Of a DNA stretch of 64,000 nucleotides, positions 25,450-63,796 are shown piece after piece. The notes beneath the pieces were generated by a model, which had not been told where the DNA came from, searched no databases, and was given only the letters and a program-made list of their open reading frames with translations. The stretch is from positions 17,520,780 through 17,584,779 of the forward strand of contig NC_089280.1 of assembly GCF_963678975.1 (NCBI RefSeq). Reading direction: 5' to 3'. The translations under genes were made by a program, and so were the position numbers. Positions within the stretch are counted from its first letter, which is position 1. Each line of letters starts with the position of its first letter. Origin of the DNA: Dysidea avara. Taxonomy: Eukaryota; Porifera; Demospongiae; Dictyoceratida; Dysideidae.

Positions 25450-26208
25450 CTAGGCAGTACATCCCACATTACGAATTTTCATTTCTGTGAATGATGGATC
25501 ATGCCATTTGTCACCAAGGTAAGTAAACCCCCATCCACCACCATGTTTGTAGTTGAAGTTTAGGTTAATCCAATTGCAATGAGTATGCCACCATCCACCT
25601 GTAGCATTAGCGCCATGTCCATCAACTGCACAATTTCTATGCCATTTGTCATTGTCTCTATCACGAGTGGTGAATTGTTGTCCACTTAAAGGATATGCAG
25701 TGAATGGGTCAATACGAGTAGTCCCAGTAAATCCTGATATACTTAGTGTATAGTTTGTACTTGGTGATCCTACACTGAAGTGATTGTAGTGGAGATAAGT
25801 GTCGGTTCCATTGGCAAATGTGAGGTCTATCCATAGTTCCCATTGTCCTTTATTGGTTAAGCAGTGTAGGGAGTGTAGTCCGTACCAAAATTCTGTTTGG
25901 AGATTACCAAATCCTAGTTCATATTCCCACCAGAATCTATTGAAGTCTTCATTAACACCTTGTATTCTCCTCTGGATTACTATCCATCCTCCACCATCAG
26001 TTAGTGTGTCACAATATCCTTGTGCTGTATGTCCTGATGTGGTTGTTGAGCAGGGGTCCCTGATGGTGTATATTCCTGGAGATGGTCTGTTTGTAGCAAA
26101 GTAGTTACCTTTAGCTGTAACACTACAACAGTTATCTATGACAGATCCATCAACTGTTGTAGCACTAACTAGAACTAGTACTGTTATAACAGTTGTAACA
26201 ACAATCAT
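25450..26208 (-). CDS. Fibrinogen-related protein, FReD gene 1
   Basis: Single-exon secreted protein, 252 codons from ATG 26208; an in-frame TTG two codons upstream is not taken as the start. Residues 1-21 are a signal peptide ending 'TTVDG'. From about residue 50 lies a fibrinogen C-terminal domain, a fold that binds glycans or microbial surfaces in ficolins and FREPs. Markers are 'CDTLTDGGGWIVIQRR' (66-81), 'FNRFWWEYELGFGNLQTEFW' (89-108), the calcium loop DRDND (183-187), and 'NCA...GGWWHTHC' (192-211). Sequons for N-glycosylation are NGT (133), NYT (152) and NAT (201). Conserved cysteines are at 27, 28, 53, 66, 116, 193, 211 and 250. The variable half carries RIDPFTAYPLSGQQ and NYKHGGGWG, close to gene 4. 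Promoter type A. Confidence 0.92.
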   Translation of the reverse strand: MIVVTTVITVLVLVSATTVDGSVIDNCCSVTAKGNYFATNRPSPGIYTIRDPCSTTTSGHTAQGYCDTLTDGGGWIVIQRRIQGVNEDFNRFWWEYELGFGNLQTEFWYGLHSLHCLTNKGQWELWIDLTFANGTDTYLHYNHFSVGSPSTNYTLSISGFTGTTRIDPFTAYPLSGQQFTTRDRDNDKWHRNCAVDGHGANATGGWWHTHCNWINLNFNYKHGGGWGFTYLGDKWHDPSFTEMKIRNVGCTA

Positions 26209-26306
26209 TGTCAACTATCAACTTTACTGCTACTAGAAGATTGACTGAAATGATTCCTAGTCAGTACATCACATAATTTTATAGTCTTTTATGCTTCCTA
26301 ATAAGG
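26209..26306 (-). promoter_or_regulatory. FReD gene 1 promoter, type A, with CArG-like box
   Basis: Reading toward the gene: CCTTATTAGG at 26306-26297, a perfect CC(A/T)6GG box 89 bases before the ATG; then GCATAAAAG and TATAAAA (26283-26277), a likely TATA box; then a leader ending 'GTTGACAATG' with A at -3. Confidence 0.6.
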
Positions 26307-27394
26307 TCATTTTAGGGCGATTTGTGTGATGTTTAATATTGCAGTTTATTCCCATATTTGGGTTATATGTATGTTTGTGTAGGCAAATGTTACCCACAAG
26401 ATTAGTTGTGAGGATAATTTTATTATTGTAATATTATTGTACAATAAACGTATTTACCCTAAAAGTGATCTTTGTATAGAATAGTGACTTTTGGTGAAAT
26501 CATAATGCTATTGAGGAAACCAGCAATGTAACTTTATGGAATTATTGTGTCAAAAGCCATTAGTCAGTCTGTCTGGTCACTGTGTTATGGATCATTTTCT
26601 CAATAACAATATGACAGGTACCTAAGCTAGCAGGCCTATATACATCAGTACAAGTGGAAGTGGTCAAACGATTACTCCTACTTGTTTATATAATACATTA
26701 AAAGTTTTACTATTACAACTGAATTTTTTTTACGGCCTGAGTAACTGATGTAGATGCACTGTAGTTGTACTTATATTGATTGGCTTGTTAGCACTGTGAC
26801 CATTCCCCTTAATACTTATAACAATCTGTTCTCTACAGAACAACACGGTGACTATTGTATTTACTTGGTTAAACACTGTGGCATTTATTACCTTAGTTTT
26901 TTTTTTAAAGATCGATGCGACAACTATCCACCACTTGATGCTCGAAAACGATGTTGCAGCCCTTATTTTCAAAATCAATTGCTGTATTCCTTAAGTGTGG
27001 ATACTATTGAAGGTGCATTTTTTAACTAAGTGAATACATGTCCCTTTAAAGACTTGTACATGATGAGTTGACTCACTTAATGATTTATTCAAGGATACCT
27101 CTATGAGAGCACCTGTGGTCAACAGCAAGATTGAAGTACTATAACAGAAAAAATAAACAAAGTGGTTTAGTAGTTGAAAACATGAAGGAGGATTCCAAGA
27201 AATAAAAAGCAGTGAAACAAGTTATATGTATTACAACATATCATATAAGCAGAAAATTTGACAGGGAATTAGATTTGGCAGTTCACTGAAATTGTCAAAT
27301 TTAAAAATTTTAATCTGCCAAATAGCCGGCCAGTTATGTAACTTTTAAGTGACATCAGGTGTGATGTTTGCTCTGTAGCACACGTATCTGTCAC

Positions 27395-28060
27395 TGACTG
27401 AACTCGTGGCTCTTTTAAAGTACTTCAAGAAAACAGAGAATAATGATGGGTTGGCATCTACCAATGCATTGATAAACAATAAATAAGAAAATCAAGCTTG
27501 AGATCAAAAACATGGAGAAATTCAGGGGAAGACTTGTATCATACTGTGACAAAGACAGGGCTGACATTGGAAGATATGCTACTGAGCATGGTCCAATAGC
27601 TGTAGCCAAACATTTCTCCAAAATTCTCAGATTTTTCGTGCCAGAGGCATCTGCGAGATGTTTCAAAAAGATTACTAGACTACTTGTGTGAGCTAAAAAC
27701 AAGCATATAAAAGCTAGAAATACAAAACCAATTAAAAATCTACCCACGAAACATCAGGGAGGACCACTTTTACCCCAAGAAGAAGCTGATCTTGCAGTAT
27801 GGAAATACATTAAATCACTGAGGTCTGTAGGTTCTTCAGTCAATACATGGGTGGGAACCATTACATCAAGGATATTTGAAAGTGCAAGGGGGGTATTCAT
27901 CTACCTCAAAGAAGGTTTCTTAAATGATAAACATGCTAATAGTATTTGAATGGTGGTGGTTCCAGCTAATTGTAGTGACAAGCTATAACCGATTGACCTG
28001 GAAATAAATATACCATCCAAAGATGCCATTTAAAAGCAGTTTAAGATTTGGTTTGTTCAA
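27395..28060 (+). pseudogene. Decayed pogo/Tigger-like (DDE) transposase, copy 1
   Basis: Fragments in different frames match sponge-type pogo relatives: a start like 'LKYFKKTENND' (27418 on), then 'ADIGRYATEHGPIAVAKHFS', 'KILRFFVPEAS', 'LPTKHQGRPLL', 'AVWKYIKSLRSVGSSVNTW', and the catalytic-region remnant 'VVPANCSDKL' followed by 'PIDLEINIPSKDA'. Several frameshifts and stops break it and most of the catalytic core is missing. This copy keeps the C-terminal motif that copies 2 and 3 lack. It is truncated by the MITE at 28072. Confidence 0.65.
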
Positions 28061-28071
28061 GATATGCAAAG

Positions 28072-28437
28072 TAAGGCTGAAACAAATACTAATACCCAAT
28101 GAGTACTCGTTAGGGTTTTGGTACTCGGATAATAAAATTGGTACTCAAGTACTTGTTAAGATCATGTGACCAGCTCACATGATGTATTTGTCACTATATG
28201 TAGTCACAATGAAGGCTGTAGAGTTTGATTAGCATATTTTTTGTCAGGGACACTAACATCAGCACTTTAATACAGTGTGTGTATCATTGTTGTTACTTTA
28301 AAGCTGTAGACTAGACTGTTTAAGGTTGGTACAAAACATGTCAAATGGGTATGACCACATGCAACTAGTATTCATGAGTACTCGATCATTAACTCTAGAG
28401 AGTACTCGAATGCTAAAAAGTGATTATTTCAGCTCTA
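28072..28437. mobile_element. hAT-type MITE in block A, copy 1
   Basis: The ends are inverted: TAAGGCTGAAACAA at the left, and at the right the reverse complement of TAGAGCTGAAATAA. They are flanked by the exact 8-base repeat ATGCAAAG (28064-28071 and 28438-28445). Inside are inverted 'gagtactcg' motifs. The same insertion is present at 54804-55157, so it predates the block duplication. Confidence 0.8.
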
Positions 28438-29361: not shown

Positions 29362-30120
29362 CTAGGCAGTACATCCCACTTTACGTATTTTCATTTCTAT
29401 AAATACTGGAGTGTGCCATTTGTCACCAAGGAAAATAAATGCATATGTCAGTGGTCCTGCGTAGTTGTAGTTGAGGTTGATTCGAAAGCAATTACTATGC
29501 CACCATCCACCTGTAGCATTAGGACCATGTCCATCAACTGCACAATTTCTGCTACTGTAGTCGTTATCTCTATCCCGTGTGGTGAATGGATGTCCATTCA
29601 ATGGTGGATAACCGAAAGAATCATAGGGAGTAATCCCAGTAAATCCTGATATACTTAATGTATAGTTTGTACTTGGTGATCCTACACTGAAGTGATTGTA
29701 GTGGAGATAAGTGTCAGTTCCATTGGCTAATGTGAGGTCTATCCATAGTTCCCATTGTTCTTTACTGGTTAAGCAGTGTAGGGAGTGTAGTCCATACCAA
29801 AATTCAGTTTGGAGATTACCAAATCCTAGTTCATATTCCCACCAGAATCGATTGAAGTCTTCATTAACACCTTGTATTCTCCTCTGGATTACTATCCATC
29901 CTCCACCATCAGTTAGTGTGTCACAATATCCTTGTGCTGTATGTCCTGATGTGGTTGTTGAGCAGGGGTCCCTGATGGTGTATATTCCTGGAGATGGTCT
30001 GTTTGTAGCAAAGTAGTTACCTTTAGCTGTAACACTACAACAGCTATCTATGACAGATCCATCAACTGTTGTAGCACTAACTAGAACTAGTACTGTTATA
30101 ACAGCTGTAACAACAATCAT
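29362..30120 (-). CDS. Fibrinogen-related protein, FReD gene 2
   Basis: 252 codons from ATG 30120, same architecture as gene 1. Individual differences in the conserved half are few (SCCS for NCCS after the signal peptide, SKEQW, LANGT). The variable half reads PYDSFGYPPLNGHP, calcium loop DRDND followed by YSSRN, NAT sequon kept, WWHSNC, and NYAGPLTYAFIFLGDKWH. This half is nearly the same as in gene 8, and both genes have a type B promoter, so 2 and 8 are the closest full-length pair of that class. All cysteines and calcium residues are intact, and I see no reason to doubt function. Confidence 0.92.
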   Translation of the reverse strand: MIVVTAVITVLVLVSATTVDGSVIDSCCSVTAKGNYFATNRPSPGIYTIRDPCSTTTSGHTAQGYCDTLTDGGGWIVIQRRIQGVNEDFNRFWWEYELGFGNLQTEFWYGLHSLHCLTSKEQWELWIDLTLANGTDTYLHYNHFSVGSPSTNYTLSISGFTGITPYDSFGYPPLNGHPFTTRDRDNDYSSRNCAVDGHGPNATGGWWHSNCFRINLNYNYAGPLTYAFIFLGDKWHTPVFIEMKIRKVGCTA

Positions 30121-30210
30121 TGTCAACTATCAACTTTACTGCTACTAAAAGATAGACTGAAATGATTAGTAGACCAATAACTTTATTGCCATATACACTT
30201 CCTAATAAGA
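30121..30210 (-). promoter_or_regulatory. FReD gene 2 promoter, type B
   Basis: CCTAATAAGA at 30201-30210 is a one-mismatch CArG-like box 81 bases before the ATG. A TATAT motif lies at 30191-30195 and an inverted CCAAT ('ccaat' on the plus strand near 30173) is closer to the gene. The rest of the promoter differs from type A. Confidence 0.5.
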
Positions 30211-33254: not shown

Positions 33255-34019
33255 CTAGGCAGTACATCCCACTTTGCGTATTTTCATTTCTGTGAATGAT
33301 GGAACATGCCATTTGTTGTTTAGGTAGATAAATGCACCAGACAGTCGTCCTGCATAGTTGTAGTTGAGGTTGATGTAAAAGCAAGTATTATGCCACCATC
33401 CACCTGTAGCATTAGGACCATGTCCATCAACTGCACAATTTCTGCTACTGTAGTCGTTATCTCTATCCCTTGTGGTAAATGGTCGTCCATTTAATGGATG
33501 CCTACTAAATGGATCCCATGGAGTAATCCCAGTAAATCCTGATATACTTAGTGTATAGTTTGTACTTGGTGATCCTACACTGAAGTGATTGTAGTGGAGA
33601 TAAGTGTCAGTTCCATTGGAAAATGTGAGGTCTATCCATAGTTCCCATTGTCCTTTACTGGTTAAGCAGTGTAGGGAGTGTAGTCCGTACCAAAATTCAG
33701 TTTGGAGATTACCAAATCCTAGTTCATATTCCCACCAGAATCGATTGAAGTCTTCATTAACACCTTGTATTCTCCTCTGGATTACTATCCATCCTCCACC
33801 ATCAGTTAGTGTGTCACAATATCCTTTCACTGTTGGTATGTTTCCTGATGTGGTTGTTGAGCAGGGGTCCCTGATGATGTATATTCCTGGAGATGGTCTA
33901 TTTGTAACAAAGTAGTTACCTGTAGCTGTAACACTACAACAGTTATCTATGACAGATCCATCAACTGTTGTGACACTAACTAGAACCAGTACTGTTATAA
34001 CAGTTGTAATAGTAGTCAT
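33255..34019 (-). CDS. Fibrinogen-related protein, FReD gene 3
   Basis: 254 codons, with the ATG at 34019; open sequence continues upstream but contains no ATG. It is the most diverged copy at its N-terminus: the signal peptide begins MTTITTV, residues T33 and V38 differ from the others, and the linker reads 'SGNIPTVKGYC' where others have 'SGHTAQGYC', two residues longer. The variable half is PWDPFSRHPLNGRP, DRDNDYSSRN, NAT sequon, WWHNTC, NYAGRLSGAFIYLNNKWH, close to gene 7. It has its own promoter type (C) and follows spacer block C, so it may be expressed differently from the rest. Domain cysteines and calcium residues are intact. Confidence 0.9.
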   Translation of the reverse strand: MTTITTVITVLVLVSVTTVDGSVIDNCCSVTATGNYFVTNRPSPGIYIIRDPCSTTTSGNIPTVKGYCDTLTDGGGWIVIQRRIQGVNEDFNRFWWEYELGFGNLQTEFWYGLHSLHCLTSKGQWELWIDLTFSNGTDTYLHYNHFSVGSPSTNYTLSISGFTGITPWDPFSRHPLNGRPFTTRDRDNDYSSRNCAVDGHGPNATGGWWHNTCFYINLNYNYAGRLSGAFIYLNNKWHVPSFTEMKIRKVGCTA

Positions 34020-35752: not shown

Positions 35753-36032
35753 TCGGAGCAGCAATGAAAGTATGTGTGGAGGCATTCCTACCTCTAAATG
35801 TTTAATATGGTACCAAATTGGTTGACTAGATATGTTAGGATATGTCAGAGCAGCAATGAAAGTATGTGTGGAGGCATTCCTACCTCTAAATGTTTAATAT
35901 GGTACCAAATTGGTTGACTAGATATGTTAGGATATGTCAGAGCAGCAATGAAAGTATGTGTGGAGGCATTCCTACCTCTAAATGTTTAATATGGTACCAA
36001 ATTGATTGACTAGATATGTTAGGATATGTTAG
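35753..36032. repeat. 92-base tandem repeat, three copies
   Basis: The motif 'gcaatgaaagtatgtgtgga' starts at 35761, 35853 and 35945, an exact 92-base period. The third unit has one substitution ('attgattgac' for 'attggttgac') and then continues with an extra 'atgttaggat'. The copies are nearly identical, so the array is recent. Confidence 0.92.
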
Positions 36033-36990: not shown

Positions 36991-37014
36991 CCCCCCCCCC
37001 CCCCCCCCCCCCCC
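36991..37014. repeat. Poly(C) tract of 24 bases
   Basis: A run of 24 C residues. Such a tract is rare in this AT-rich sequence and its exact length may be a sequencing or assembly estimate. Confidence 0.9.
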
Positions 37015-37649: not shown

Positions 37650-38414
37650 TTATTTAGCAGTGCATCCTACTGAACGTATTTTTGTTTCTATGAATGCTGG
37701 ATCATGCCACTCCCAAGGTCCAAAGTTAATAAACCCATATGATCCACCATGTTTGTAGTTTAGGTTAAGGTTGATATAATTGCAATGAGTATACCACCAT
37801 CCACCTGTAGCATTAGCGCCATGTCCATCAACTGCACAATTTCTAGGCCATTTGTCATTGTCTCTATCACGAGTGGTGAATTGTTGTCCACTTAAAGGAT
37901 ATGCAGTGAATGGGTCAATACGAGTAATCCCAGTAAATCCTGATATACTTAGTGTATAGTTTGTACTTGGTGATCCTACACTGAAGTGATTGTAGTGGAG
38001 ATAAGTGTCAGTTCCATTGGCAAATGTGAGGTCTATCCATAGTTCCCATTGTCCTTTACTGGTTGAGCAGTGTAGGGAGTGTAGTCCATACCAAAATTCA
38101 GTTTGGAGATTACCAAATCCTAGTTCATATTCCCACCAGAATCGATTGAAGTCTTCATTAACACCTTGTATTCTCCTCTGGATTACTATCCATCCTCCAC
38201 CATCAGTTAGTGTGTCACAATATCCTTGTGCTGTATGTCCTGATGTGGTTGTTGAGCAGGGATCCCTGATGGTGTATATTCCTGGAGATGGTCTGTTTGT
38301 AGCAAAGTAGTTACCTTTAGCTGTAACACTACAACAGTTATCTATGACAGATCCATCAACTGTTGTAGCACTAACTAGAACTAGTACTGTTATAACAGTT
38401 GTAACAACAATCAT
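37650..38414 (-). CDS. Fibrinogen-related protein, FReD gene 4
   Basis: 254 codons from ATG 38414. Its variable half is the same type as gene 1 (RIDPFTAYPLSGQQ, DRDNDKWPRN, NYKHGG) but with WWYTHC, 'SYGFINFGPWEWH', 'ETKIRSVG' and a one-residue C-terminal extension (TAK). The cysteine 'HCSTSKGQW' is kept. The 3' flank differs from all other copies, so the left duplication border lies just outside the stop codon. Promoter type A. The calcium loop and the NAT sequon are intact. Confidence 0.92.
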   Translation of the reverse strand: MIVVTTVITVLVLVSATTVDGSVIDNCCSVTAKGNYFATNRPSPGIYTIRDPCSTTTSGHTAQGYCDTLTDGGGWIVIQRRIQGVNEDFNRFWWEYELGFGNLQTEFWYGLHSLHCSTSKGQWELWIDLTFANGTDTYLHYNHFSVGSPSTNYTLSISGFTGITRIDPFTAYPLSGQQFTTRDRDNDKWPRNCAVDGHGANATGGWWYTHCNYINLNLNYKHGGSYGFINFGPWEWHDPAFIETKIRSVGCTAK

Positions 38415-44031: not shown

Positions 44032-44790
44032 CTAGGCAGTACATCCTACTTTACGTATTTTCATTTCAGCAAATGATGGAACATGATATTTGTCACCTAG
44101 GTGAATAAATGCAACCGTCAGTGGTCCTGCATAGTTGCAATTAAGGTTGATGTTAAAGCAAGCATTATACCACCATCCACCTGTACCATAGATAGTATGT
44201 CCATTAACTGCACAATTTCCACTGCCACGATCATTATCTCTATCGCGTGTGGTGAATGATCGTCCGTTTAATGGATGCCTACTAAATGGATCTATTGGAG
44301 TAATCCCAGTAAATCCTGATATACTTAGTGTATAGTTTGTACTTGGTGATCCTACACTGAATTGATTGTAGTGGAGATAAGTGTCAGTTCCATTGGCTAA
44401 TGTGAGGTCTATCCATAGTTCCCATTGTCCTTTACTGGTTAAGCAGTGTAGGGAGTGTAGTCCGTACCAAAATTCAGTTTGGAGATTACCAAATCCTAGT
44501 TCATATTCCCACCAGAATCGATCAAAGTCTTCATTAACACCTCGTATTCTCCTCTGGATTACTATCCATCCTCCACCATCAGTTAGTGTGTCACAATATC
44601 CTTGTGCTGTATGTCCTGATGTGGTTGTTGAGCAGGGATCCCTGATGGTGTATATTCCTGGAGATGGTCTCTTTGTAGCAAAGTAGTTACCTTTAGCTGT
44701 AACACTACAACAGTTATCTATGACAGATCCATCAACTGTTGTAGCATTAACTAGAACTAGTACTGTTATAACAGTTGTAACAACAATCAT
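44032..44790 (-). CDS. Fibrinogen-related protein, FReD gene 5
   Basis: 252 codons from ATG 44790. It is nearly identical to gene 6; in the protein I see three differences (N15, R83 and D90 where gene 6 has S, Q and N). The variable half reads PIDPFSRHPLNGRS, DRDNDRGSGN, 'VNGHTIYGTGGWWYNAC' (the NAT sequon is lost), 'NCNYAGPLTVAFIHLGDKYH' with an extra cysteine, and 'FAEMKIRKVG'. The promoter is type A, unlike its near-twin gene 6. An odd cysteine count could favour disulfide-linked dimers; that is inference. Confidence 0.92.
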   Translation of the reverse strand: MIVVTTVITVLVLVNATTVDGSVIDNCCSVTAKGNYFATKRPSPGIYTIRDPCSTTTSGHTAQGYCDTLTDGGGWIVIQRRIRGVNEDFDRFWWEYELGFGNLQTEFWYGLHSLHCLTSKGQWELWIDLTLANGTDTYLHYNQFSVGSPSTNYTLSISGFTGITPIDPFSRHPLNGRSFTTRDRDNDRGSGNCAVNGHTIYGTGGWWYNACFNINLNCNYAGPLTVAFIHLGDKYHVPSFAEMKIRKVGCTA

Positions 44791-44888
44791 TGTCAACTAT
44801 CAACTTCACTGCTACTAAATTATTGACTGGAATGGTTCCTAGTCAATTCATCGCGTAATTTTATAGTCTTTAATGCTTCCTAATAAGG
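44791..44888 (-). promoter_or_regulatory. FReD gene 5 promoter, type A, with CArG-like box
   Basis: Perfect CCTAATAAGG at 44879-44888, 89 bases before the ATG. TATAAAA is on the minus strand just downstream of it. The sequence matches the gene 4 promoter closely. Confidence 0.6.
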
Positions 44889-45578
44889 TCATTTTAGGGT
44901 AATTTGTATGATGTTTAATGTTGCAGGTTATTCCCATATTTGGGGTTATATGTGTGTTCATGTAGGCAAAAGTTACCCACAAGATTAGTTGTGATGACAG
45001 TTTTATTACTGTATTTAGCCTAAAAGTGATCTTTGTATAGAAGGGTGACTTGGTGAATCATAATGCTATTAAGGAAACCAGTAATGTAACTTGATGAAGT
45101 TATTGTGTCAAAAGCCATTAGTCAGTCTGTCTGGTCACTGTGTTATGGATCATTTTCTCAATAACAATATGACAGGTACCTAAGCTAGCAGGCCTATATA
45201 CATCAGTACAAGTGGAAGTGTTTAAATGATTACTCCTACTTGTTTATATAGCACATTAAAGTATTACTATTACAACTGAACTTTTTACAGCCTGAGTAAC
45301 TGATGTAGATTCACTGTAGTTGTACTTATAATGATTGGCTTGTTAGCACAACGACCACTCCCCTTAATATTTATAACAATCTGTTCTCTACAGAACGAAA
45401 CAGTATTTACTTGGTTAATTAAACACTGTAGCATTTATTACCTCAGTTTTGAAGATCAATGCGGCGACTATCCACCACTTGATGCTTGAAAATGATGTTG
45501 CAGCTCTTATTTTCAAAATCGATTGTTGCACCCCTCGAATACAGATAATATTGAAGGTGCAGTATTTAATTTAATTAA

Positions 45579-46057
45579 CCTTAGGCCCCTAACGCCACTA
45601 TAGTGGCTTTGGTTCTTAAAAGCGAAAGTTATTTCACTGAAAACGTTTTGACATACAAACATGGGCTCCTGTTACTCCATGTAGGGACCACCTATTTCTT
45701 CATGGTTTGCATTAAGCTATTCATGAAGGATAGATCTACAACATCGTATAACTTACTAACCTTCTTTATTCCGTCTCTCCTTTGTGACAGGTAGTATCAT
45801 CGTAGCTATCATCTTTAAAGTGGTTGAAAATTCTTTTAAACGCAGATTCGCCTTACATCACGGTTGATCGTGCTACAATGCTCGGATAAAGCTTAGGATA
45901 ATATCCGTTAACCACAGAGTAGTGTGGTCCATACCGTATATTCATAGGATATTTTGTTTACGAGATATTGTGTTTGAACGCATGTGTGTAACAAGAGCCA
46001 CTATAGTGGCGTTCGTGTTTAACGGAATATATTTTTATTAACTTAGGGACCAAAGGG
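45579..46057. mobile_element. piggyBac-like MITE, 479 bases, at a TTAA site
   Basis: TTAA flanks the element on both sides (45575-45578 and 46058-46061). The ends are inverted: CCTTAGGCCCCTAA at the left and the reverse complement of CCCTTTGGTCCCTAA at the right. A further inverted pair, CGCCACTATAGTGGC, occurs inside each end (45593 on and 46003-46013 region). Other block A copies show the uninterrupted site 'tttaactaag'. An internal frame of 63 codons (45603-45794) has no recognisable domain. Confidence 0.78.
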
Positions 46058-46098
46058 TTAATTAATTAATTAATTAATTAATTAGTTAATTAACTAAG
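46058..46098. repeat. (TTAA)n simple repeat
   Basis: 'ttaattaattaattaatt' repeats follow the MITE directly. The repeat probably grew from the TTAA target duplication. Confidence 0.85.
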
Positions 46099-46497
46099 TA
46101 GATACGGTATGCCCCTTTAAAGATTTGTAGGTATACACTTACAATGATGGGTTGACTCACTCAATGATTTATTCATAGGATACCTCTATGAGAGCACCTG
46201 TAGTCAATGGCAAGATTGAAGTACTATAAACAGAAAAAGTAAACAAAGTAGTTTAATAATTTAAAACATGAAGGAGGGTTTCAAGAAATAAAAAAAAAGG
46301 TAGTGAAACAAGTTATATGTATTACAACATATCATATAAGCAGAAAATTTGACAGGGAATTAGATTTGGCAGTTGGTGAAATTTCACTGAAATTGTCAAA
46401 TTTAAATCTGCCAAATAGCCAGCCAGTTGCATAACTTTAAGTGATGTTAGGTGTGATGGTTGCTGTGTAGCACACGCATCTGTCACTTGCTGATCTC

Positions 46498-47115
46498 ATG
46501 GCTCTTTTGAAATACTTCAAGAAGACAGAGAATAATGACAGGTTGGCATCTACCAATGAACACTTGACCATTGACACCAGCAAATAAGAACATCAAGCCT
46601 GAGATTAAAAAACATGGAGAAATTCAGGGAAATACCTGTATCATATGCAATGAAGACAGGGCTGACATTGGAAGATATGCTACTGAGCATGGTCCAATAG
46701 CTGCAGCCAAACATTTCTCCAAAATTCTTAGATTTTTCGTGCCAGAGGCACTTCAAAAAGAGTACTAGAGTACAAAGCAAGTATATAAAATTAGAAATAC
46801 AAACCAATTAATAATCTACCCACGAAACATCAGGGAGTACTGCTTTTATCCCAAGAAGAAGCCAATCTTGCAGTATGGAAATACATTAAATCACTGAGGT
46901 CTGTTGGTTCTTCAGTCAATACATGGGTGGGAGTCATTACACCCAGGATATTTGAAAGGGCAAAGGGGTCCTTTGACGTGAAAAAATTCTCGGCTAAATC
47001 TCTTCTATTCAGAATGACTTTTGTTAGGTGAAAGAATAGCAACACAAGTTAAGTGGTTTCAAATTCCAAGTGAATCCATCTACTTCAAAGAAGGAAGATC
47101 ACGTGACCCAACTCA
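46498..47115 (+). pseudogene. Decayed pogo-like transposase, copy 3
   Basis: It starts with 'atggctcttttgaaatactt' (MALLKYFKKTENNDRLAST), then changes frame to 'NIKPEIKKHGEIQGNTCIIC' and 'RADIGRYATEHGPIAAAKHF'. The next part, 'AVWKYIKSLRSVGSSVNTWV', is in another frame. It is almost identical to copy 2, with the same loss of the catalytic part. Confidence 0.62.
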
Positions 47116-48333
47116 CATGATGTATTTGTCATTATGTAGTGACACGGTGAAGGCTGTAGAGTTTGATAGGCATAATTTTTTTTTGTCGGGGACACTAACA
47201 TCAGCTCTTTATCAGTGTGTGTATCATTGTTGTTACTTCAATAGCTGTAAACTGTTTAAGGTTGGTACAAAACATGTCAAATGGGTATAACCACATGTAA
47301 CTGGTACTTGTAATACTAATGCAACCATGATTGTTTCAGCTAATGATTGTTTCAGAGTACTTGAATACTAATGCAACCATGATTGTTTCAGCTAATGCAA
47401 AGACAGCTTGACAGTGTGGTACCTGTAAAATAGATGTACGTATGAGTACAGTAAAGCCCTTGAGTGCAAGCTGGTAAATGTCTTCAATTGTAGAAATCTA
47501 TAGTAGGCCTCAACTTTTCATTAAAGGATTCAGGAATAACCCATGCTTTGCAGATGTTAAGGTCTTCTGATACATTGTGATAACTGTGTGTGCTTGATTG
47601 ATTATTGAGTATTACTTTAGTTATAGACCAATTTCACGAGGATCTTCATGATTGTATTCACAACATGACTGCACTACAAACTAGTGACTAATAGTATCTA
47701 AACTTATTTACTGTTCTACATTGAAGGTTAGATATTTGTTGATGGTGAGAAACTGAAGGGAACCAGAAGTTTATCTTCAAAGTATTGTGAAAGGTGGTTG
47801 TGCATCACTGAGTGTTGTTAATTACTAAAGCATGACTCACTGCCATAATATAAGCAATTGTGACCATCATTGCAATAGCAAATGTGACCGGATCTGTGAG
47901 AACCCGACACAATCATGCAAGCCTAAATTTACAATTGAATACAAAAGGTGAAATACTTGCGTATTATTGAAAACATCGTTTTGTTAGTGAAGGAAAAGAC
48001 TAACAATAAAAACTTAGATATCACATCTTGTTCGTCTACTCAAGAGATCAAAAATCTTTGTTTCATTGCAGTTGACCCAAGGACACACAAGATATGGGCG
48101 TTTGTGTATGTCACTTCAAAGTGATCATAATACAATCGATTTTTGATTACATTGTCTTGAGCTTTCATTTTTTTTGAGAGAGAGAGCTTAATTGGATTAA
48201 TTGTTTGTTTAATCAGCAAAAATGTTTACAAAACATGTATGGTCTACCATCTAAAGATATCCTACTACATGATACAAAAGATGCAGCTACTAACAAAGTT
48301 CTACAACACAACAGTAATACTGAGTGAGAGTCA

Positions 48334-49092
48334 CTAGGCAGTACATCCTACTTTACGTATTTTCATTTCAGCAAATGATGGAACATGATATTTGTCACCT
48401 AGGTGAATAAATGCAACCGTCAGTGGTCCTGCATAGTTGCAATTAAGGTTGATGTTAAAGCAAGCATTATACCACCATCCACCTGTACCATAGATAGTAT
48501 GTCCATTAACTGCACAATTTCCACTGCCACGATCATTATCTCTATCGCGTGTGGTGAATGATCGTCCGTTTAATGGATGCCTACTAAATGGATCTATTGG
48601 AGTAATCCCAGTAAATCCTGATATACTTAGTGTATAGTTTGTACTTGGTGATCCTACACTGAATTGATTGTAGTGGAGATAAGTGTCAGTTCCATTGGCT
48701 AATGTGAGGTCTATCCATAGTTCCCATTGTCCTTTACTGGTTAAGCAGTGTAGGGAGTGTAGTCCGTACCAAAATTCAGTTTGGAGATTACCAAATCCTA
48801 GTTCATATTCCCACCAGAATCGATTGAAGTCTTCATTAACACCTTGTATTCTCCTCTGGATTACTATCCATCCTCCACCATCAGTTAGTGTGTCACAATA
48901 TCCTTGTGCTGTATGTCCTGATGTGGTTGTTGAGCAGGGATCCCTGATGGTGTATATTCCTGGAGATGGTCTCTTTGTAGCAAAGTAGTTACCTTTAGCT
49001 GTAACACTACAACAGTTATCTATGACAGATCCATCAACTGTTGTAGCACTAACTAGAACTAGTACTGTTATAACAGTTGTAACAACAATCAT
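48334..49092 (-). CDS. Fibrinogen-related protein, FReD gene 6
   Basis: 252 codons from ATG 49092. The coding sequence and the 3' flank are almost the same as for gene 5, but the upstream flank is type B, as in genes 2 and 8. The crossover point therefore lies in or just before the conserved half of the coding region. All domain cysteines, the DRDND calcium loop and the extra cysteine of 'NCNYAG' are present. Two genes making essentially the same protein under different promoters suggest either dosage or different expression; this is inference. Confidence 0.92.
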   Translation of the reverse strand: MIVVTTVITVLVLVSATTVDGSVIDNCCSVTAKGNYFATKRPSPGIYTIRDPCSTTTSGHTAQGYCDTLTDGGGWIVIQRRIQGVNEDFNRFWWEYELGFGNLQTEFWYGLHSLHCLTSKGQWELWIDLTLANGTDTYLHYNQFSVGSPSTNYTLSISGFTGITPIDPFSRHPLNGRSFTTRDRDNDRGSGNCAVNGHTIYGTGGWWYNACFNINLNCNYAGPLTVAFIHLGDKYHVPSFAEMKIRKVGCTA

Positions 49093-52158: not shown

Positions 52159-52920
52159 CTAGGCAGTACATCCCACTTTGCGTATTTTCATTTCTGTGAA
52201 TGATGGAACATGCCATTTGTAGTCTAGGTAGATAAATGCACCAGACAGTGGTCCTGCATAGTTGTAGTTGAGGTTGATGTAAAAGCAAGCATTATGCCAC
52301 CATCCACCTGTACCATGTACACCACGTTGATTAACTGCACAATTTTTGCTATTATGATTATCATTATCTCTATCCCTTGTGGTAAATGGTCGTCCATTTA
52401 AGGAATACCTACTAAATGGATCCCATGGAGTAATCCCAGTAAATCCTGATATACTTAGTGTATAGTTTGTACTTGGTGATCCTACACTGAAGTGATTGTA
52501 GTGGAGATAAGTGTCAGTTCCATTGGCAAATGTGAGGTCTATCCATAGTTCCCATTGTCCTTTACTGGTTAAGCAGTGTAGGGAGTGTAGTCCGTACCAA
52601 AATTCTGTTTGGAGATTACCAAATCCTAGTTCATATTCCCACCAGAATCTATTGAAGTCTTCATTAACACCTTGTATTCTCCTCTGGATTACTATCCATC
52701 CTCCACCATCAGTTAGTGTGTCACAATATCCTTGTGCTGTATGTCCTGATGTGGTTGTTGAGCAGGGGTCCCTGATGGTATATATTCCTGGAGATGGTCT
52801 GTTTGTAGCAAAGTAGTTACCTTTAGCTGTAACACTACAACAGTTATCTATGACAGATCCATCAACTGTTGTAATACTAACTAGAACTAGTACTGTTATA
52901 ACAGTTGTAACAACAATCAT
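52159..52920 (-). CDS. Fibrinogen-related protein, FReD gene 7
   Basis: 253 codons from ATG 52920. The N-terminal half is the standard sequence (SITTVDG near the signal cleavage site). The variable half reads PWDPFSRYSLNGRP, calcium loop DRDNDNHNSKN with one inserted residue, 'VNQRGVHGTGGWWHNAC' without the NAT sequon, and 'NYAGPLSGAFIYLDYKWH'. Its end resembles gene 3, as does its 3' flank, while the 'NQRG' segment resembles gene 9. This is a mosaic pattern. Promoter type A. Confidence 0.92.
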   Translation of the reverse strand: MIVVTTVITVLVLVSITTVDGSVIDNCCSVTAKGNYFATNRPSPGIYTIRDPCSTTTSGHTAQGYCDTLTDGGGWIVIQRRIQGVNEDFNRFWWEYELGFGNLQTEFWYGLHSLHCLTSKGQWELWIDLTFANGTDTYLHYNHFSVGSPSTNYTLSISGFTGITPWDPFSRYSLNGRPFTTRDRDNDNHNSKNCAVNQRGVHGTGGWWHNACFYINLNYNYAGPLSGAFIYLDYKWHVPSFTEMKIRKVGCTA

Positions 52921-54790: not shown

Positions 54791-54803
54791 AAGATATGCA
54801 AAG

Positions 54804-56117: not shown

Positions 56118-56876
56118 CTAGACAGTACATCCCACTTTACGTATTTTCATTTCTGTGAATAATGGGATGTGCCATTTGTCACCAAGGTAAATAAACGCAT
56201 ATATCAGTGGTCCTGCATAGTTGTAGTTGAGGTTGATTCGAAAACAATTACTATGCCACCATCCACCTGTAGCATTAGGACCATGTCCATCAACTGCACA
56301 ATTTCTACTACTGTAGTCATTATCTCTATCCCGTGTGGTGAATGGATGTCCATTCAATGGTGGATAACCAAAAGAATCATAGGGAGTAATCCCAGTAAAT
56401 CCTGATATACTTAGTGTATAGTTTGTACTTGGTGATCCTACACTGAAGTGATTGTAGTGGAGATAAGTGTCAGTTCCATTGGCTAATGTGAGGTCTATCC
56501 ATAGTTCCCATTGTCCTTTACTGGTTAAGCAGTGTAGGAAGTGTAGTCCATACCAAAATTCTGTTTGGAGATTACCAAATCCTAGTTCATATTCCCACCA
56601 GAATCTATTGAAGTCTTCATTAACACCTTGTATTCTCCTCTGGATTACTATCCATCCTCCACCATCAGTTAGTGTGTCACAATATCCTTGTGCTGTATGT
56701 CCTGATGTGGTTGTTGAGCAAGGATCCCTGATGGTGTATATTCCTGGAGATGGTCTTTTTGTAGCAAAGTAGTTACCTTTAGCTGTAACACTACAACAGT
56801 TATCTATGACAGATCCATCAACTGTTGTAGCACTAACTAGAACTAGTACTGTTATAACAGTTGTAACAACAATCAT
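56118..56876 (-). CDS. Fibrinogen-related protein, FReD gene 8
   Basis: 252 codons from ATG 56876. It differs from gene 2 at few positions: NCCS, 'GLHFLHC', 'TYAFIFLGDKWHTPVFIE' against 'IYAFIYLGDKWHIPLFTE', and a final V for A. PYDSFGYPPLNGHP, YSSRN and the NAT sequon are shared. Type B promoter and a type A 3' flank, exactly as for gene 2. Genes 1-2 and 7-8 with their spacers therefore look like two copies of one two-gene repeat unit. Confidence 0.92.
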   Translation of the reverse strand: MIVVTTVITVLVLVSATTVDGSVIDNCCSVTAKGNYFATKRPSPGIYTIRDPCSTTTSGHTAQGYCDTLTDGGGWIVIQRRIQGVNEDFNRFWWEYELGFGNLQTEFWYGLHFLHCLTSKGQWELWIDLTLANGTDTYLHYNHFSVGSPSTNYTLSISGFTGITPYDSFGYPPLNGHPFTTRDRDNDYSSRNCAVDGHGPNATGGWWHSNCFRINLNYNYAGPLIYAFIYLGDKWHIPLFTEMKIRKVGCTV

Positions 56877-57673: not shown

Positions 57674-60600
57674 CAAAGCCTGAAATTACAGTCGGACATC
57701 GGACAATTTCCGACCATTTTCAGCAACTGTCCGACCAAGTATCACTTTGTGCGGACATGTTGTCCGAGCCATTCAAAAGCTACAGTATTGCATGGATAAT
57801 AAATACGAGAGAATGAAAATCATTAACCTGGCAAAGCGGCTTAAGGAGGTGTTACCGTAAGGAAAGTCTTCCACATGCATCATCGCATCGCATCATCAAT
57901 CGCTGCATCGCTGGTAAGATAGTCACGTAACAAGTTTAAAAGCACATGAGCAAGTGCTAATTTTACAAAAGAAAAAATTCTCCTCCTGTTGAGAAACGGA
58001 GGAAGCTGTACTCGGGTTAATGATGCTGGTATCACTCTGCAGTGTATCATACAGTATGTATTAAACCGTTTACTTGTTCGTTGAGAACTATGTTGATTTA
58101 GTGCATACTGATTTTCGCTCGCTAAACTTTATCGTTGGTGCGCCACTAAGTCTGGCTTGCTGGGGAGCATGCCTAGCCCGCCTCTAGTTCAACATTTTAT
58201 AGAGTTCTCACAGTTAAATAAATAACTAAAGAAATTAAGACACTTTAAATAGTTTAATTGGTAAAGCAGGTATCCTGATGAAAACGCCCGAAACAGTTTA
58301 GCGAGCTAGAATATCAATGGCCTAGTTACTGTAGTAAACTAATTCGTGTTTTAATCCAGGCTAGGGATGTTGCCAGTGTTTTAGTGAGTGTACTCCAGAC
58401 TTACGTACAATGTCCAAGAGGAGTTGTAGTAGCTCAAATGGTGATCAAGACTCTTCCAGTTCCACGAAGCGTCATAAAGTGAAAGTGACCACCTTCCAGA
58501 AATGGGTCAGAGACTACGACCGTGTATACAACACTGCAATGTGGCTGGATTCTGAAGCATCATGGCATAATGGAGAAAAGGTAGTAGAGAAGCTTAAATG
58601 TAAAGTATGCACTAAGTATAGAGAAAGAATTATTGGTCGGAAAAATTTTAGTATGAAGTGGATTGAAGGGGCAGATAGTGTACGCACCACCAATGTGATC
58701 GATCATGCCAAGACAGACCAACATGTCCAAGCCATGAAACTTCAACAAATGGAGGTAGCACAAAGTAGAGGTGTGGACTCTACTGCATTTATGCCAATTG
58801 TGCAATCACTCAATACCATTTCAGAGGAAGAACGCAAAAAATTAAGGATGAAATTTGATACTGCGTATTTTGTAGCAGTCGAACAAATTGCATATCAAAA
58901 ATATCCAAAAATATGTGAGTTACAAATAAAACATGGTGTAAACTTAGGTAGTTCATACTTAAATGAAAATGCTGCAAAGGAGTTTGTGCAATATATTGCT
59001 GAGTCAAAACGCCAGTCAATATTGTTGTCAGTTTAGAAGGCAGCATTCTTTTCCATCTTAATGGATGGATCTACAGACTCCTCTAATACTGAAAATGAAA
59101 TGTTATTTATTATGTGGTGTGAAGTTGATAGTGATGATCACATGATACATTCAAGGATGGCTTGCCTGTCTATGCATACACCACTCCACACAAATGCTGA
59201 GGTTTGTTTGAGTCCCTCCAACAAGGACTTCATTTGTTGGGTATAACCAGTGTTACACAGGAAACTTGTAGTGGTTTAGTGGGCATTGCCACAGATGGGG
59301 CATCATCTAATATTGCTGGAAATGGGCTACATGGGTTGGTTGAGGAAAAGCTCCCCTGGGTGGTTTGGATGTGGTGCTTGGCACACAGAACTGAATTAGC
59401 TATAAACAATGCCCTCTCTAGTACTTCTTGCTTTAAGCTAATAGATGACATGCTTCTGCGATTATATTACCTTTATCAGAAGTCTCCGAAAAAGTGCAGA
59501 GAGTTGGCAAATATTATATCTGATCTTACTGAAGTTTATGAAATAAATAATCAAGGGGAACAAGGCCAATTCGAGCTTGTGGCACACGTTGGGTATGCCA
59601 TAAAGTCAGTGCAATGAAAAGGGTCTTGGCCAAGTTTGGAGCTTACACTGCTCATCTCTGCACTTTGTCTGAGGACTCATCAGTAAAGGCTACCGATCGT
59701 TGCAAGTTTATTGGGTATTTAAGCAAATGGACTGATGCTAAATATCTATTGGGTTGTGCAGTGTTTGTTGATCTTCTCACACCATGCTCAATTTTTTCCA
59801 AAACCATGCAGGCTGATGAATTAGATATAGTCAGTGCATTTACGTACTTACTTAAAACTGTTGAGAAACTAAAGAAAAAACCTCTATCTAAGTGGGACAC
59901 TTATGCTACCATTGTTAAAAAAGTGATTCAGGTAAATGGAAAACATATGTACCAAGGGCAAGAACTTAAGCATTTTTCAGAAACTAAATCCTATTTTGAA
60001 AACCACTATAATGAATTTTGCCAGTTGGTGGTGGAGAATCTGCGTACAAGGTTACAGTGGTCAGATATGCAATTGTTCAGGGATGTCATCTTTGTGCTAG
60101 CTACACAAGGCTGGGAGACGATCCTGCAGGAAGATGAGGAAAAGTATGTTATTGATATTGATGAGGATAATGTAGTTGCTGGTAATGAGGATGACAGTAA
60201 CGATGACTCTCAACCATCGTCAGATTCCTTAGATGCTTTAGACAGGTTGGTGGATCATTTCAGAATACCATTGGAATCTGCTGGGGCTGATATCAATGAA
60301 ATCCAGCAAGAATTTAGGTCTATGGTGGAGTATTCCATTCAATTTATTTCACTGTCTACAATGAATTACAAGTTGGTGTGGTGGCGTTTGTTTAATTGTC
60401 CAAGCTCATCAGAGTGGCGAAATGCCCTCCTTTTAGCCAAAATATTGTTTTCGTTACCAACATCTAATGGTAAGGTAGAAAGAGCCTTTTCACAGATGAA
60501 CCTCATTAAAACTACAAAGAGACGTTCCCTGTGTTAAAAAAGTTTGGATAATTTAGTTTCATTAAATGTTGATAAATGTCCACTCCAAGACTTTTCGGCA

Positions 60601-61157
60601 GATTCATCTATAGACTTGTGGTGGGGAGCCAAGCAGAGGAGACCTTCCCATGGCCCACGAAAACATTACAAGAAGCGGTGTTCTAAAGGGAAAGGAAAGT
60701 CGGCAGGTGACTCTCAGCCAAGCTTGGAATGTGATGTGGTAGTTCTGGATGATGAGGAAATTGAATACGATGCAGACGGTGATGAAAAAGAGGATGAGGA
60801 GCAAGGACAAAAGTTTGTACTTGATGACTGGGATGATTGGGTTTTGTAATGGCTTCACCGCTTGTGTAATTTACATTGTCACATGTGTATTTGGTAATTT
60901 ACTTCACCTTATCACTTATTACTCACCTTGTCACTTATTACTTTACCTTGTCACTTATTACATTACTTTCTCACTTGTGTATTTATTTACTTTATACTTT
61001 GTGAATGTCACTTGTGCATGAAGGTAGTTATATGTATTTCAGTACTGTACATTGAAATTTATGCTATGGTAATGTCTGACCAAAAGTTAAAATGTCTGAA
61101 CACTTAGTTGTTCAGACACTTTGTCAGGACAGTTTTAAGAAGTAATTTCAGGCTCTG
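57674..61157 (+). mobile_element. hAT transposon, 3.5 kb, inserted in spacer block B
   Basis: The ends are inverted repeats, CAAAGCCTGAAATTAC on the left and the reverse complement of CAGAGCCTGAAATTAC on the right. The direct repeat TAGTTG flanks both sides (57668-57673 and 61158-61163), and uninterrupted 'ttagtyggtgcaagcac' sites are present in the other block B copies. Subterminal regions contain many 'gtcyga' and 'tccgacc' motifs, typical transposase-binding repeats. It contains one transposase gene, now broken. Confidence 0.88.
58410..60849 (+). pseudogene. hAT-family transposase, inactivated
   Basis: Starts at ATG 58410 with a Ser/Lys-rich N-terminus, then a zinc-finger-like segment (CKVC ... 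HAKTDQH), then hAT core landmarks: 'FFSILMDGSTDSSNTE', 'GIATDGASSNIAGNG', 'CLAHRTELAINNA', 'GTRWVCHK', and the C-terminal dimerisation motif 'SLPTSNGKVERAFSQMNLIK'. The closest general type is the hAT group related to vertebrate ZNF862/KIAA1586-like proteins. It is broken by an in-frame TAG (59034-59036), frameshifts near 59202 and 59570, and an in-frame TAA (60535-60537). The acidic tail ends at 60849. Disruptions are few, so inactivation is recent. Confidence 0.85.
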
Positions 61158-61422
61158 TAGTTGGTACAGGCACCTGTCAGTACAGTGTAATTAGTAAAGC
61201 TTCATAAATGCTCCTAACTTTTCTAAGGATAGACAAAGAGTGGGTGACCATTTGACTTCAAAAACACTAGAAAGCTACAGAAGGCTAAGTCCTGTCCAAA
61301 AGGAGCACAATTAAACAAATGGTTGTGGTCATACAAGTTGATGATGGATAACAGGCAATCGAAGCTATGCTATACAATTGTTCAGCCACTTGATTACCAC
61401 CTAGCCATTACATTACACCAAG

Positions 61423-61480
61423 TGAGTCTTACAAGCCATGCAAGTCTTACAAGCCATGCAGGTCTTACAAGCCATGCAAG
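61423..61480. repeat. 18-base tandem repeat, three copies
   Basis: The unit 'agtcttacaagccatgca' occurs three times with one substitution. The homologous places in block B copies 1 and 2 (near 31190 and 50118) have it once, so the expansion is specific to this copy. Confidence 0.88.
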
Positions 61481-61978
61481 TGAATTGAACATGCAGTGGT
61501 TTTGAATTTATGCTCCTTTATTTCTTGTAACTTTCAATTGACTTCATCACTAGGTTGTTAATCGATAGTGTTGTCATAATCACATAGTCACATATGTACT
61601 ACAAGATTGTTCAAAGGTGGTTTCCAGATTGGTAATGACCTAGTTATACTGCAAGGGTCTGGGGTACAGCCCCCAGCTGCTGACAGATTTTAAACATTAG
61701 AATGCTTCAAAATTTATTTGGCTAATTGATTTCACAGACAGAAAACTATTGTCAATTTATGCTTTGTTCTGAGTCCTAAATGTAAATTATGGCCAGTCAG
61801 TTATCCAAATTCCCCAACTGGAATGAAAAGTCAAGATTTGGTTGCTAAATTACACTATCCTTTTAAGTTCTTTACATTTTTAAAATTATATTCTGTTATG
61901 AGTTTTGACTACTCTATTAGAATACAACTGACTGTTCTATTAGAGTATCTCGATATTATACAGGTTTTTAACCAGGCT

Positions 61979-62046
61979 GTGTGTGTGTATGTGTGTGTGT
62001 ACCTATCTACCTATCTATCTATCTATCTATCTATCTACCTATCTAT
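61979..62046. repeat. GT and CTAT microsatellites
   Basis: A 'gtgtgtgtatgtgtgtgtgt' run followed by (CTAT)n with interspersed 'ctac' units. Confidence 0.9.
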
Positions 62047-63038
62047 GTTTGTCCGTATGCACCCATGTGAGCAAAATCATTAATGATAAAAGCAGCTTTT
62101 ACGTAAGAAGTAAAAATGAAATGAAGTCTGTATTAACTTACGCACAGGCAAACTCTGCTCTAAGGTTGAGTCTAAGGTGGTTTCTTTTCAGCGGTACGAG
62201 TGTGGCGACTTTCCTCAGACTTTATGGATTACCTTCCCTCTGGGCTTTACAGATGTTTAACAATTGAGAAACAACAGTGCAGCCTCGTAAACTACCCGAA
62301 AAAAAGGAATAGCCTATCCCTTCGAGTTGGGAAAGGGGACGTATCCCCGAAGTACACAAACGAAAATGAAGAGCAGCTTTGAGGCTTTGTCGAGAGGATT
62401 TGTGGAAAAAACTATATTCAAACTACAGAACAGTTTAGAAGATACTTCTGTGTGTAATATGTTGTTAAAAGCGGATTCTTTAATAAGCGCTTCCTTAGCA
62501 GTGCATAGCAACATAATTGAAGAATTACGAATTACAAAATCTGAGAATTACAGTAAATTAATTATGCATTATTGCACAACATAATGAAGTAGTAATACAT
62601 AGTTGGTTAATTCCAGATGAGTTGGCTAGCTGCATGGCGCCTGGTTTTTAGAAGTAGCACAACGTCAACTTGTTTCAACACATACTATCCTTCTCCCTTA
62701 ATCTTTGAGGGTATAATTATACTACTTTCGTTCTGATTATATGTGGTGATAGTCCTGCACACAAGCCTACAAGTTAAAATTTCAGAGGGGGTTTCCGGAA
62801 CCCCAGGAAACCCCCTAAATGTGTCCCTGGTACTATAAGTTATTTTATGATGCATTGTTGACCATGACCTTACTACTGACTCTGTAAATAACACATTTAA
62901 TCAACGGTGTTTAGGGAAACAAATTACAAATGTTAATAAGTACATGCACACTATCTAAAGATATCCTACTACATGATACAAAGGATGCAGCTACTAATAA
63001 AGTTTCTACAACACAACAGTAATGCTGAGTAAGGGTCA

Positions 63039-63796
63039 CTAGGCAGTACATTCCACTTTACGTATTTTCATTTCTGTCAATACTGGAGTGTGCCATTTGT
63101 CACATTTGAAGTGAATAAATGCTTGTGTTGGTGGTCCTGCATAGTTGTAGTTGAGGTTGATTAGAAAGCATCCATTATGCCACCACCCACCTGTACCATT
63201 AATACCACGTTGCTTAACTGCACAATTTGTGCTACTGAACTTGTCATTGTCTCTATCACAAGTGGTGAATTGTTGTCCTGCATGATAATTGAATGGATCC
63301 CGTGGAGTAATCCCAGTAAATCCTGATATGCTTAGTGTATAGTTTGTACTTGGTGATCCTACGCTGAAGTGATTGTAGTGGAAATAAGTGTCAGTTCCAT
63401 TGGCAAATGTGAGGTCTATCCATAGTTCCCATTGTCCTTTACTGGTTAAGCAGTGTAGGGAGTGTAGTTCGTACCAAACTTCAGTTTGGAGATTACCAAA
63501 TCCTAGTTCATATTCCACCAGAATCGATTGAAGTCTTCATTAACACGTTGTATTCTCCTCTGGATTACTATCCATCCTCCACCATCAGTTAGTGTGTCAC
63601 AATATCCTTGTGCTGTATGTCCTGATGTGGTTGTTGAGCAGGTGTCCCTGATAGTATATATTCCTGGAGATGGTCTGTTTGTAGCAAAGTAGTTACCTTT
63701 AGCTGTAGCACTACAACAGTTATCTATGACAGATCCATCAACTGTTGTAGCACTAACTAGAACTAGTACTGTTATAACAGTTGTAACACCAATCAT
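63039..63796 (-). pseudogene. Fibrinogen-related gene, FReD gene 9, frameshifted
   Basis: The ATG is at 63796. A single C is missing within 63514-63516 ('attccacc' where all others have 'attcccacc'), which shifts the frame after 'NEDFNRFWW'. The remainder (63039-63518) reads on in another frame to the usual C-terminus. Additional substitutions hit conserved positions: T for P in 'DPC', E for G in 'WYELHSLHC', C for R before the calcium loop, and E for G in the last 'VECTA'. The variable half (PRDPFNYHAGQQ, 'KFSSTN', 'KQRGINGTGG') is distinct and would carry an NGT sequon. Its CArG-like box is also altered. An assembly error at the single base cannot be excluded. Confidence 0.85.

What the first reader, a model, noticed from the sequence alone, without database searches (positions are those of the whole stretch)
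25450..63796. Nine-gene FReD array: invariant N-terminal half, hypervariable C-terminal patches
Residues 1-162 are almost the same in all copies, but residues ~163-178, 188-203, 209-213 and 218-240 differ sharply, including insertions and gained or lost glycosylation sequons. Scaffold cysteines, GGWW and DRDND are kept. These patches surround the calcium site and the expected ligand pocket of fibrinogen domains. This is what a diversified recognition repertoire would look like, comparable in idea to snail FREPs and ficolins.
Basis: partly seen in the sequence, partly recalled or inferred. Interest (0 to 1): 0.82.

Follow-up and report, generated by a model that had tools for sequence, protein, structure and literature searches.

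The report
Lectin-like gene array with swapped tips
A row of near-identical, probably secreted lectin-like genes in an animal genome, perhaps a sponge's, keeps the same front two thirds but carries a different, mosaic ligand-binding end in most copies, as an inherited set of varied recognition proteins would.

Summary
The array is real: nine same-strand, single-ORF fibrinogen-domain (FReD) genes, eight intact and one frameshifted. It runs on past the window (12 copies in a row, six more close relatives on the same contig). In 11 intact copies codons 1-165 are nearly identical (mean dS 0.06) and the last ~92 are not (dS 0.50, dN 0.22). In 10 of 13 pairs with alignable flanks the C-block is a divergence island; c2-c6 differ 3% in the 5' flank, 2% in the N-half, 24% in the C-block, 5-8% downstream. 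Synonymous sites jump too, so amino-acid selection alone cannot explain it. Patches are mosaic (c3, x35; run p=0.0002, PHI p=0.0005), pointing to segmental gene conversion. C-block omega is about 0.43, with ~8% of sites above 1 (0 of 48 null replicates). Variable residues include equivalents of FIBCD1 ligand-site positions; enrichment is p=0.001 to 0.11, depending on which positions count. Three other arrays show the contrast in protein, only one of them clearly at synonymous sites. Best reading: a germline lectin repertoire whose ligand-binding subdomain is shuffled on a homogenised chassis. Ligands, expression, species and individual variation are untested. New variant of a known kind.

The parts
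25450..26208 (-). FReD copy c1; C-block about 25453-25722
   Evidence: Pfam Fibrinogen_C
29362..30120 (-). FReD copy c2; C-block about 29365-29634
   Evidence: unit shares about 4.2 kb with that of c6
33255..34019 (-). FReD copy c3 (diverged 5' end, two-residue insert); C-block about 33258-33527, a mosaic of c7-like and c2-like segments
37650..38414 (-). FReD copy c4; C-block about 37653-37928
44032..44790 (-). FReD copy c5; C-block about 44035-44304, identical to that of c6
48334..49092 (-). FReD copy c6; C-block about 48337-48606
52159..52920 (-). FReD copy c7; C-block about 52162-52434
56118..56876 (-). FReD copy c8; C-block about 56121-56390
63039..63796 (-). FReD copy c9, frameshifted (pseudogene or assembly error)

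Best explanation
A tandem, germline-encoded repertoire of small, probably secreted, lectin-like proteins. Each gene is one open frame: hydrophobic N-terminus (signal peptide by eye), a short stretch with a conserved CC pair (possibly for disulfide-linked oligomers), then one FReD. The first part of the FReD (to about residue 162) is a shared chassis kept alike by concerted evolution. The C-terminal part, which holds the calcium and ligand sites (the P subdomain, a recalled name), is where copies differ: gene conversion moves short C-block segments between paralogues, selection keeps old C-block variants apart, and a minority of codons evolve under positive selection. Different copies would bind different glycans or microbial surface groups with the same body. 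Shown by computation: the divergence island in most tested pairs, mosaicism, the place of variable sites on a sequence alignment, recurrence of the protein-level contrast in three other arrays. Inferred: secretion, oligomers, calcium-dependent binding, microbial targets, the agent of selection.
For: Mean dS .062 to .504 and dN .019 to .224 from N-half to C-block in 11 copies. In 10 of 13 chosen pairs (of 36 possible) the C-block differs by 17% or more while the N-half differs by 1.6-3.0%; c2-c6: 5' flank .027, 5'UTR .058, N .018, C .239, 3'UTR .051, 3' flank .077; sharp edges in the c2-c6 profile. c1-c7: N dS .018, C dS .71, Fisher 1e-12; 10 of 12 pairs listed have p<.05. PHI in the C-block below all 2000 permutations. 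Runs c2-c3, c4-x35 and c6-x35 each at p=.0002 among 45 pairs. M2a over M1a with three patch trees 2dl 7.70; 0 of 48 null replicates reach it. Equivalents of FIBCD1 381, 396-399, 412, 413 and 415 vary while 393, 395 and 414 do not (contacts read); without the calcium Asp and Cys these positions are more variable than the rest of the C-block, p=.0012. C-block column profiles correlate in 5 of 6 family pairs. C4 array C-block M2a 2dl 20.4. CC pair in 48 of 50 aligned FReDs.
Against: Three of 13 pairs show little or modest C-block excess: c2-c8 (C .053, N .020, 3' flank .086), c3-c7 (.083.040.014), c5-c6 (0). In the three c10 pairs the 3'UTR is diverged as well, and in the six other pairs with alignable 5' flank that involve c1, c10 or c5-c7 that flank differs by 9-13%. 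C-block omega is .43-.44; 36-51% of sites sit near 1 under M1a. C3 C-block has no significant omega>1 class (p=.20), while the N-half of this family (p=.034) and the stretch before the boundary in C4 (p=.037) have weak ones. C4 synonymous divergence is about as high over much of its N-half as in its C-block. C2-C4 column profiles do not correlate (rho .09), and the other correlations could partly reflect shared scaffold constraint. As aligned, the equivalents of Tyr431 (F in 11 of 11), Trp443 (H in 10 of 11) and Lys390 (R in 11 of 11) hardly vary, though 431 and 443 sit beside indels; with all named positions counted the enrichment is p=.11. The acetyl-pocket His415 is replaced, so the classic ligand cannot be assumed. 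No expression, binding, structure or population data.
Confidence: 0.63

Rival explanations
1. Plain concerted evolution with relaxed constraint: the copies are old, N-half and flanks are homogenised by conversion, and the C-block escapes because its divergence blocks conversion. No selection for diversity.
For: C-block omega .43-.44 with 36-51% of sites near 1 under M1a; no positive class in the C3 array; enrichment at contacts not significant when all named positions are counted.
Against: The protein-level contrast recurs at a similar boundary in other arrays and many of the same columns vary; an omega>1 class beats the null; calcium aspartates, the scaffold cysteines and GGWW are kept, so constraint is patterned, not lost.
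Confidence: 0.22
2. Functional divergence without immunity: secreted matrix or self-recognition proteins whose C-blocks specialise for different endogenous partners.
For: Tenascins and angiopoietins are among the nearest solved relatives. No immune assay exists here.
Against: Fast turnover (6 of 18 close places broken, truncated or out of frame at an end) and mosaic shuffling are more usual in recognition repertoires; this is general knowledge, not a test.
Confidence: 0.12
3. Local hypermutation of the C-block DNA rather than conversion.
For: Focal rise at all codon positions with sharp edges.
Against: Long identical segments shared between different copies and conserved codons between patches.
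Confidence: 0.03

Closest known systems
Tachylectin-5A and secreted invertebrate FReD lectins
   Same: One FReD; TL5A chain 1jc9 is among the solved relatives found by sequence, E 1e-21; short N-terminal stretch and oligomers in TL5A are recalled
   Different: Large tandem family with mosaic C-blocks; His415-equivalent replaced and a five-residue insert before GGWW relative to ficolin-2 and tenascin-R
Biomphalaria FREPs
   Same: FReD repertoire diversified partly by gene conversion (PMC7588048 passages)
   Different: No IgSF domain found here; diversity confined to one block; no somatic evidence. Single exon is not a clean difference: the same paper reports two single-exon FREPs
Ficolins / FIBCD1
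   Same: FReD with calcium aspartates and paired cysteines; variable sites at equivalents of many of their ligand-site positions
   Different: No collagen region found by Pfam and no anchor by eye; acetyl pocket not conserved
Sea urchin Sp185/333 (SpTransformer) family
   Same: Clustered small genes of high diversity (search listings with abstract starts)
   Different: Unrelated protein; element mosaic over the gene rather than one structural subdomain (recalled)
Trichoplax secreted FReD/intelectin-like clusters
   Same: About 250-residue single-FReD proteins with signal peptide, in clusters (PMC6321704 passages)
   Different: Up to 31 genes there, classed as intelectins; C-block diversification not mentioned in the passages seen

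Membership tests
Fibrinogen_C (FReD) domain proteins | Pfam PF00147 match over the curated cut-off | tested here: met
   three of the nine window copies scanned, 133-139 bits against cut-off 22
Fibrinogen_C (FReD) domain proteins | calcium-site aspartates and paired cysteines of the C-terminal part | tested here: met
   equivalents of 393, 395, 401, 414 invariant in 11 of 11
Snail FREPs | one or two IgSF domains before the FReD | tested here: not met
   only Fibrinogen_C found in the three copies scanned; the 11 intact copies are 251-254 aa
Snail FREPs | somatic diversification within an individual | not testable with these tools
   one assembly only
Ficolins | collagen-like region | tested here: not met
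   no such match in the three copies scanned and none seen in the translations
Ficolin/TL5A-type S1 acetyl binders | conserved S1 pocket (Tyr405, His415, Tyr431, Ala432 in FIBCD1) | tested here: not met
   415 is F in 8, N in 2, Y in 1 of 11; 405 aligns to G/Q; 431-432 not securely alignable
Diversified recognition repertoire | variation concentrated on ligand-contact positions | tested here: inconclusive
   within the C-block, 12 alignable named positions p=.047; 9 without calcium Asp and Cys p=.0012; 15 with the insecure ones p=.11
Diversified recognition repertoire | variation between individuals | not testable with these tools
   no population data

The most novel reading that the evidence does not exclude
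An early-branching animal, perhaps a sponge, carries a genome-wide, germline-diversified recognition system of well over a hundred FReD genes, many of them single open frames, in which the ligand-binding subdomain is a shuffling module on a homogenised chassis, differing between individuals and used to sort microbes or self from non-self: a cassette-like repertoire made by gene conversion alone, without IgSF domains.
Probability: 0.28. Interest if true: 0.86.

Novelty: new variant of a known kind. Interest (0 to 1): 0.62.

Why it matters
Diversified FReD recognition is best known from snails. A large lectin-like family whose variation is focused on one structural block, and partly mosaic, would be a different design, and if the host is a sponge it would make the question of how such animals tell microbes apart directly testable by resequencing C-blocks and by glycan arrays. 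If the genome is Dysidea avara, the published 59 Fibrinogen_C genes (PMC12909245) are well below the 150 places over the cut-off here; the two counts were made differently.

Tried and rejected
A silent cassette archive as donor pool: a 272-base C-half DNA search gave 20 matches, 19 on C9; 18 coincide with the 18 close places, one is a 64-base piece beside a copy with an internal stop, one weak match is on C15. No archive seen, but a DNA search can miss diverged donors.

Cross-family import: in protein block trees the W copies (ten and x158) are one group for the N-block (support .999); for the C-block the group also takes in two distant FReDs, L032 and L033, next to x158, so import into x158 is not excluded; the ten main copies stay together.

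Microsatellite-driven shuffling: 13 tandem-repeat rows in 24000-64000, a 92-base minisatellite at 35756-36029 among them, none at the C-block edges. The numbering anchor (ficolin-2) fits at 393, 395, 401, 414, 415, 432 and 443, but has Phe at 405 and 431, where PMC3908420 calls the residues conserved in L-ficolin.

Species: a nuclear copy of COX1 reads with TGA as Trp, which fits sponges but also cnidarians; that it looks sponge-like is my recall. Genome size (550.8 Mb here, 575 Mb in D. avara) is similar; the contigs met in searches are C1-C13 and C15, but chromosomes were not counted. Not proven.

Rows dropped: of 18 close places 11 were used for codon work; left out were c9, c11, c12, x18a, x18b and the second copy at 35.64 Mb (broken, truncated or out of frame at an end) and x158 (72% identical). 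c5 was dropped as a duplicate C-block, and from the run test. One search used 13 of 36 possible pairs of nine copies, chosen from the BLAST matches. C3: 10 ORFs, 8. C4 8.9-9.2 Mb: 7, 5. C2: all 3. The C4 5.6-5.9 Mb loci and L077-L078 got no array analysis of their own. PHI in the N-block rests on 12 informative sites, so its p=.94 has little power.
Full report
What is there. The window is G000:C9:17520780-17584779 of a 550.8 Mb, 108-contig genome. Nine minus-strand FReD copies lie at 25450-63796, eight intact and one frameshifted. The 11 intact close copies analysed are single ORFs of 251-254 residues with a hydrophobic N-terminus and a CC pair; the three window copies scanned match Fibrinogen_C only. 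The own-genome protein search gave 18 close places (72% identity or more), all on C9: 12 in the contiguous stretch and six elsewhere on that contig. The family search scored 150 of 496 first-look candidates, all 150 over the Pfam cut-off, some with an internal stop; none of the window's copies is in that list, so the true total is higher.

The observation. In the 11 copies the N-half (codons 1-165) has mean dS .062 and dN .019; the C-block (166-end) has dS .504 and dN .224. Because synonymous sites jump as well, amino-acid selection alone cannot be the cause. Flanking DNA gives a yardstick. In 13 chosen pairs with alignable flanks the pooled p-distances are 5' flank .084, last 120 bases before the ATG .073, N-half .023, C-block .190, 3'UTR .064, 3' flank .060; 10 of 13 pairs have C-block distances of .17 or more. 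Three do not: c2-c8 (.053), c3-c7 (.083) and c5-c6 (0). In the three c10 pairs the 3'UTR is diverged too (.18-.32). The c2-c6 profile rises between nucleotides 481 and 510 and falls by the stop codon. In the all-pair profile the far flanks are not homologous in every unit and are no neutral yardstick. Of 12 pairs listed, 10 have more synonymous change in the C-block at p<.05; c2-c8 (.06) and c3-c7 (.8) do not.

Mosaics. PHI in the C-block is below all 2000 permutations (p=.0005); in the N-block p=.94, on 12 sites only. Copy c3 is closest to c7 in the first patch (3 differences), identical to c2 in the second, and closest to c7 in the third and fourth (2 and 2). x35 is closest to c4 in the first patch (4), to c7 in the second (8), ties between c2, c3 and c7 in the third, and is closest to c5/c6 in the fourth (4). 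Among 45 pairs, runs at c2-c3 (codon columns 184-212), c4-x35 (172-179) and c6-x35 (236-256) have p=.0002, the floor for 5000 permutations. Segmental gene conversion between paralogues is the simplest cause.

Selection. C-block omega under one ratio is .443 on one tree and .425 on three patch trees. M2a beats M1a by 2dl 13.9 (p=.001) and 7.70 (p=.021) respectively, with 8.7% and 8.5% of sites above 1; columns 168 and 216 stand in both by simple posterior. Under a simulated M1a null with three trees, 0 of 48 replicates reach 7.70; the largest is 6.73. Recombination within patches is not modelled. The N-half gives a weak result (p=.034; a signal-peptide site and column 40). In other arrays: C4 C-block 2dl 20.4 with five sequences, and the 100 codons before its boundary p=.037; C3 C-block p=.20.

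Where the variable sites fall. FIBCD1 positions were taken from passages of PMC3908420 and PMC10825690: calcium at Asp393, Asp395, Ser397, Asn399; S1 at Tyr405, Cys414, His415, Tyr431, Trp443, Ala432; neighbours His396, Glu398, Arg412, Asn413, Lys381; S3 Lys390. Numbered through the ficolin-2 chain printed, the equivalents of 390, 393, 395, 401 and 414 are invariant in 11 of 11 copies, while 381, 396, 397, 398, 399, 412, 413 and 415 vary, as do 411 and 416. Indels (five extra residues before GGWW, a shorter loop after NLN) make 405, 431, 432 and 443 insecure; as aligned, 431 and 443 hardly vary. Within the C-block the named positions are more variable than the rest at p=.047 (12 alignable), p=.0012 (9, without calcium Asp and Cys) and p=.11 (15, with the insecure ones). 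So the patches include most of the site, but the test is mixed. That the C-block equals the P subdomain of fibrinogen domains is recalled.

Recurrence. Mean amino-acid heterozygosity, N-block against C-block, is .03/.28 in this family.033/.266 in C2 (three genes).067/.204 in C3 and .15/.333 in C4; C-block column profiles correlate in 5 of 6 family pairs, not in C2-C4; shared scaffold constraint may add to this. At synonymous sites the contrast is clear in C2, mild in C3, and in C4 limited to a conserved stretch just before the boundary, the rest of its N-half being about as diverged as its C-block.

Mechanism. Most likely: concerted evolution keeps chassis and flanks alike; conversion moves C-block segments between copies; selection keeps variants apart and drives a few codons. 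The proteins would act as secreted, perhaps disulfide-linked, calcium-dependent lectins of differing specificity. Secretion, oligomers, ligands and function are inferred. Selection-free escape of the C-block from conversion, and a non-immune role, stay open.

Comparison. These are FReD proteins by Pfam and by the calcium and cysteine positions. They are not snail FREPs (no IgSF) nor ficolins (no collagen region) nor canonical S1 acetyl binders. They may work like a FREP-type repertoire. Nine paper searches were answered; among the titles and abstract starts listed I saw no sponge FReD array with this pattern, but some listings were cut (for example 15 of 144) and the library holds open-licence papers only. 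In Dysidea avara, five fibrinogen-like genes changed after exposure to microbial signals, two up and three down (PMC6208332, passages), and the published count is 59 Fibrinogen_C genes (PMC12909245, section 18 and passages).

Noticed in passing
58410-60537: Three plus-strand ORFs between c8 and c9: the first matches a C17orf113-type zinc finger, the other two match nothing in Pfam; perhaps a transposase-derived element (recalled resemblance).
   Followed up: partly
3443-10068: A zf-TRAF/MATH protein gene and NACHT and LRR ORFs upstream of the array, i.e. innate-immunity-type neighbours.
   Followed up: partly
35756-36029: 92-base minisatellite, 3 copies, 99% matches, between c3 and c4.
   Followed up: no
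L042:9309-9991: A copy whose N-half is 96% identical to c7 and whose match breaks at about residue 170, near the C-block boundary; a short C-terminal fragment lies beside the neighbouring copy (L042:6362-6474).
   Followed up: partly
44032-49092: c5 and c6 share an identical C-block and an extra cysteine at residue 218.
   Followed up: no
L079: Nuclear copy of most of mitochondrial COX1 with internal stops, read with TGA as Trp; 21 COX1 matches scattered over the contigs.
   Followed up: partly
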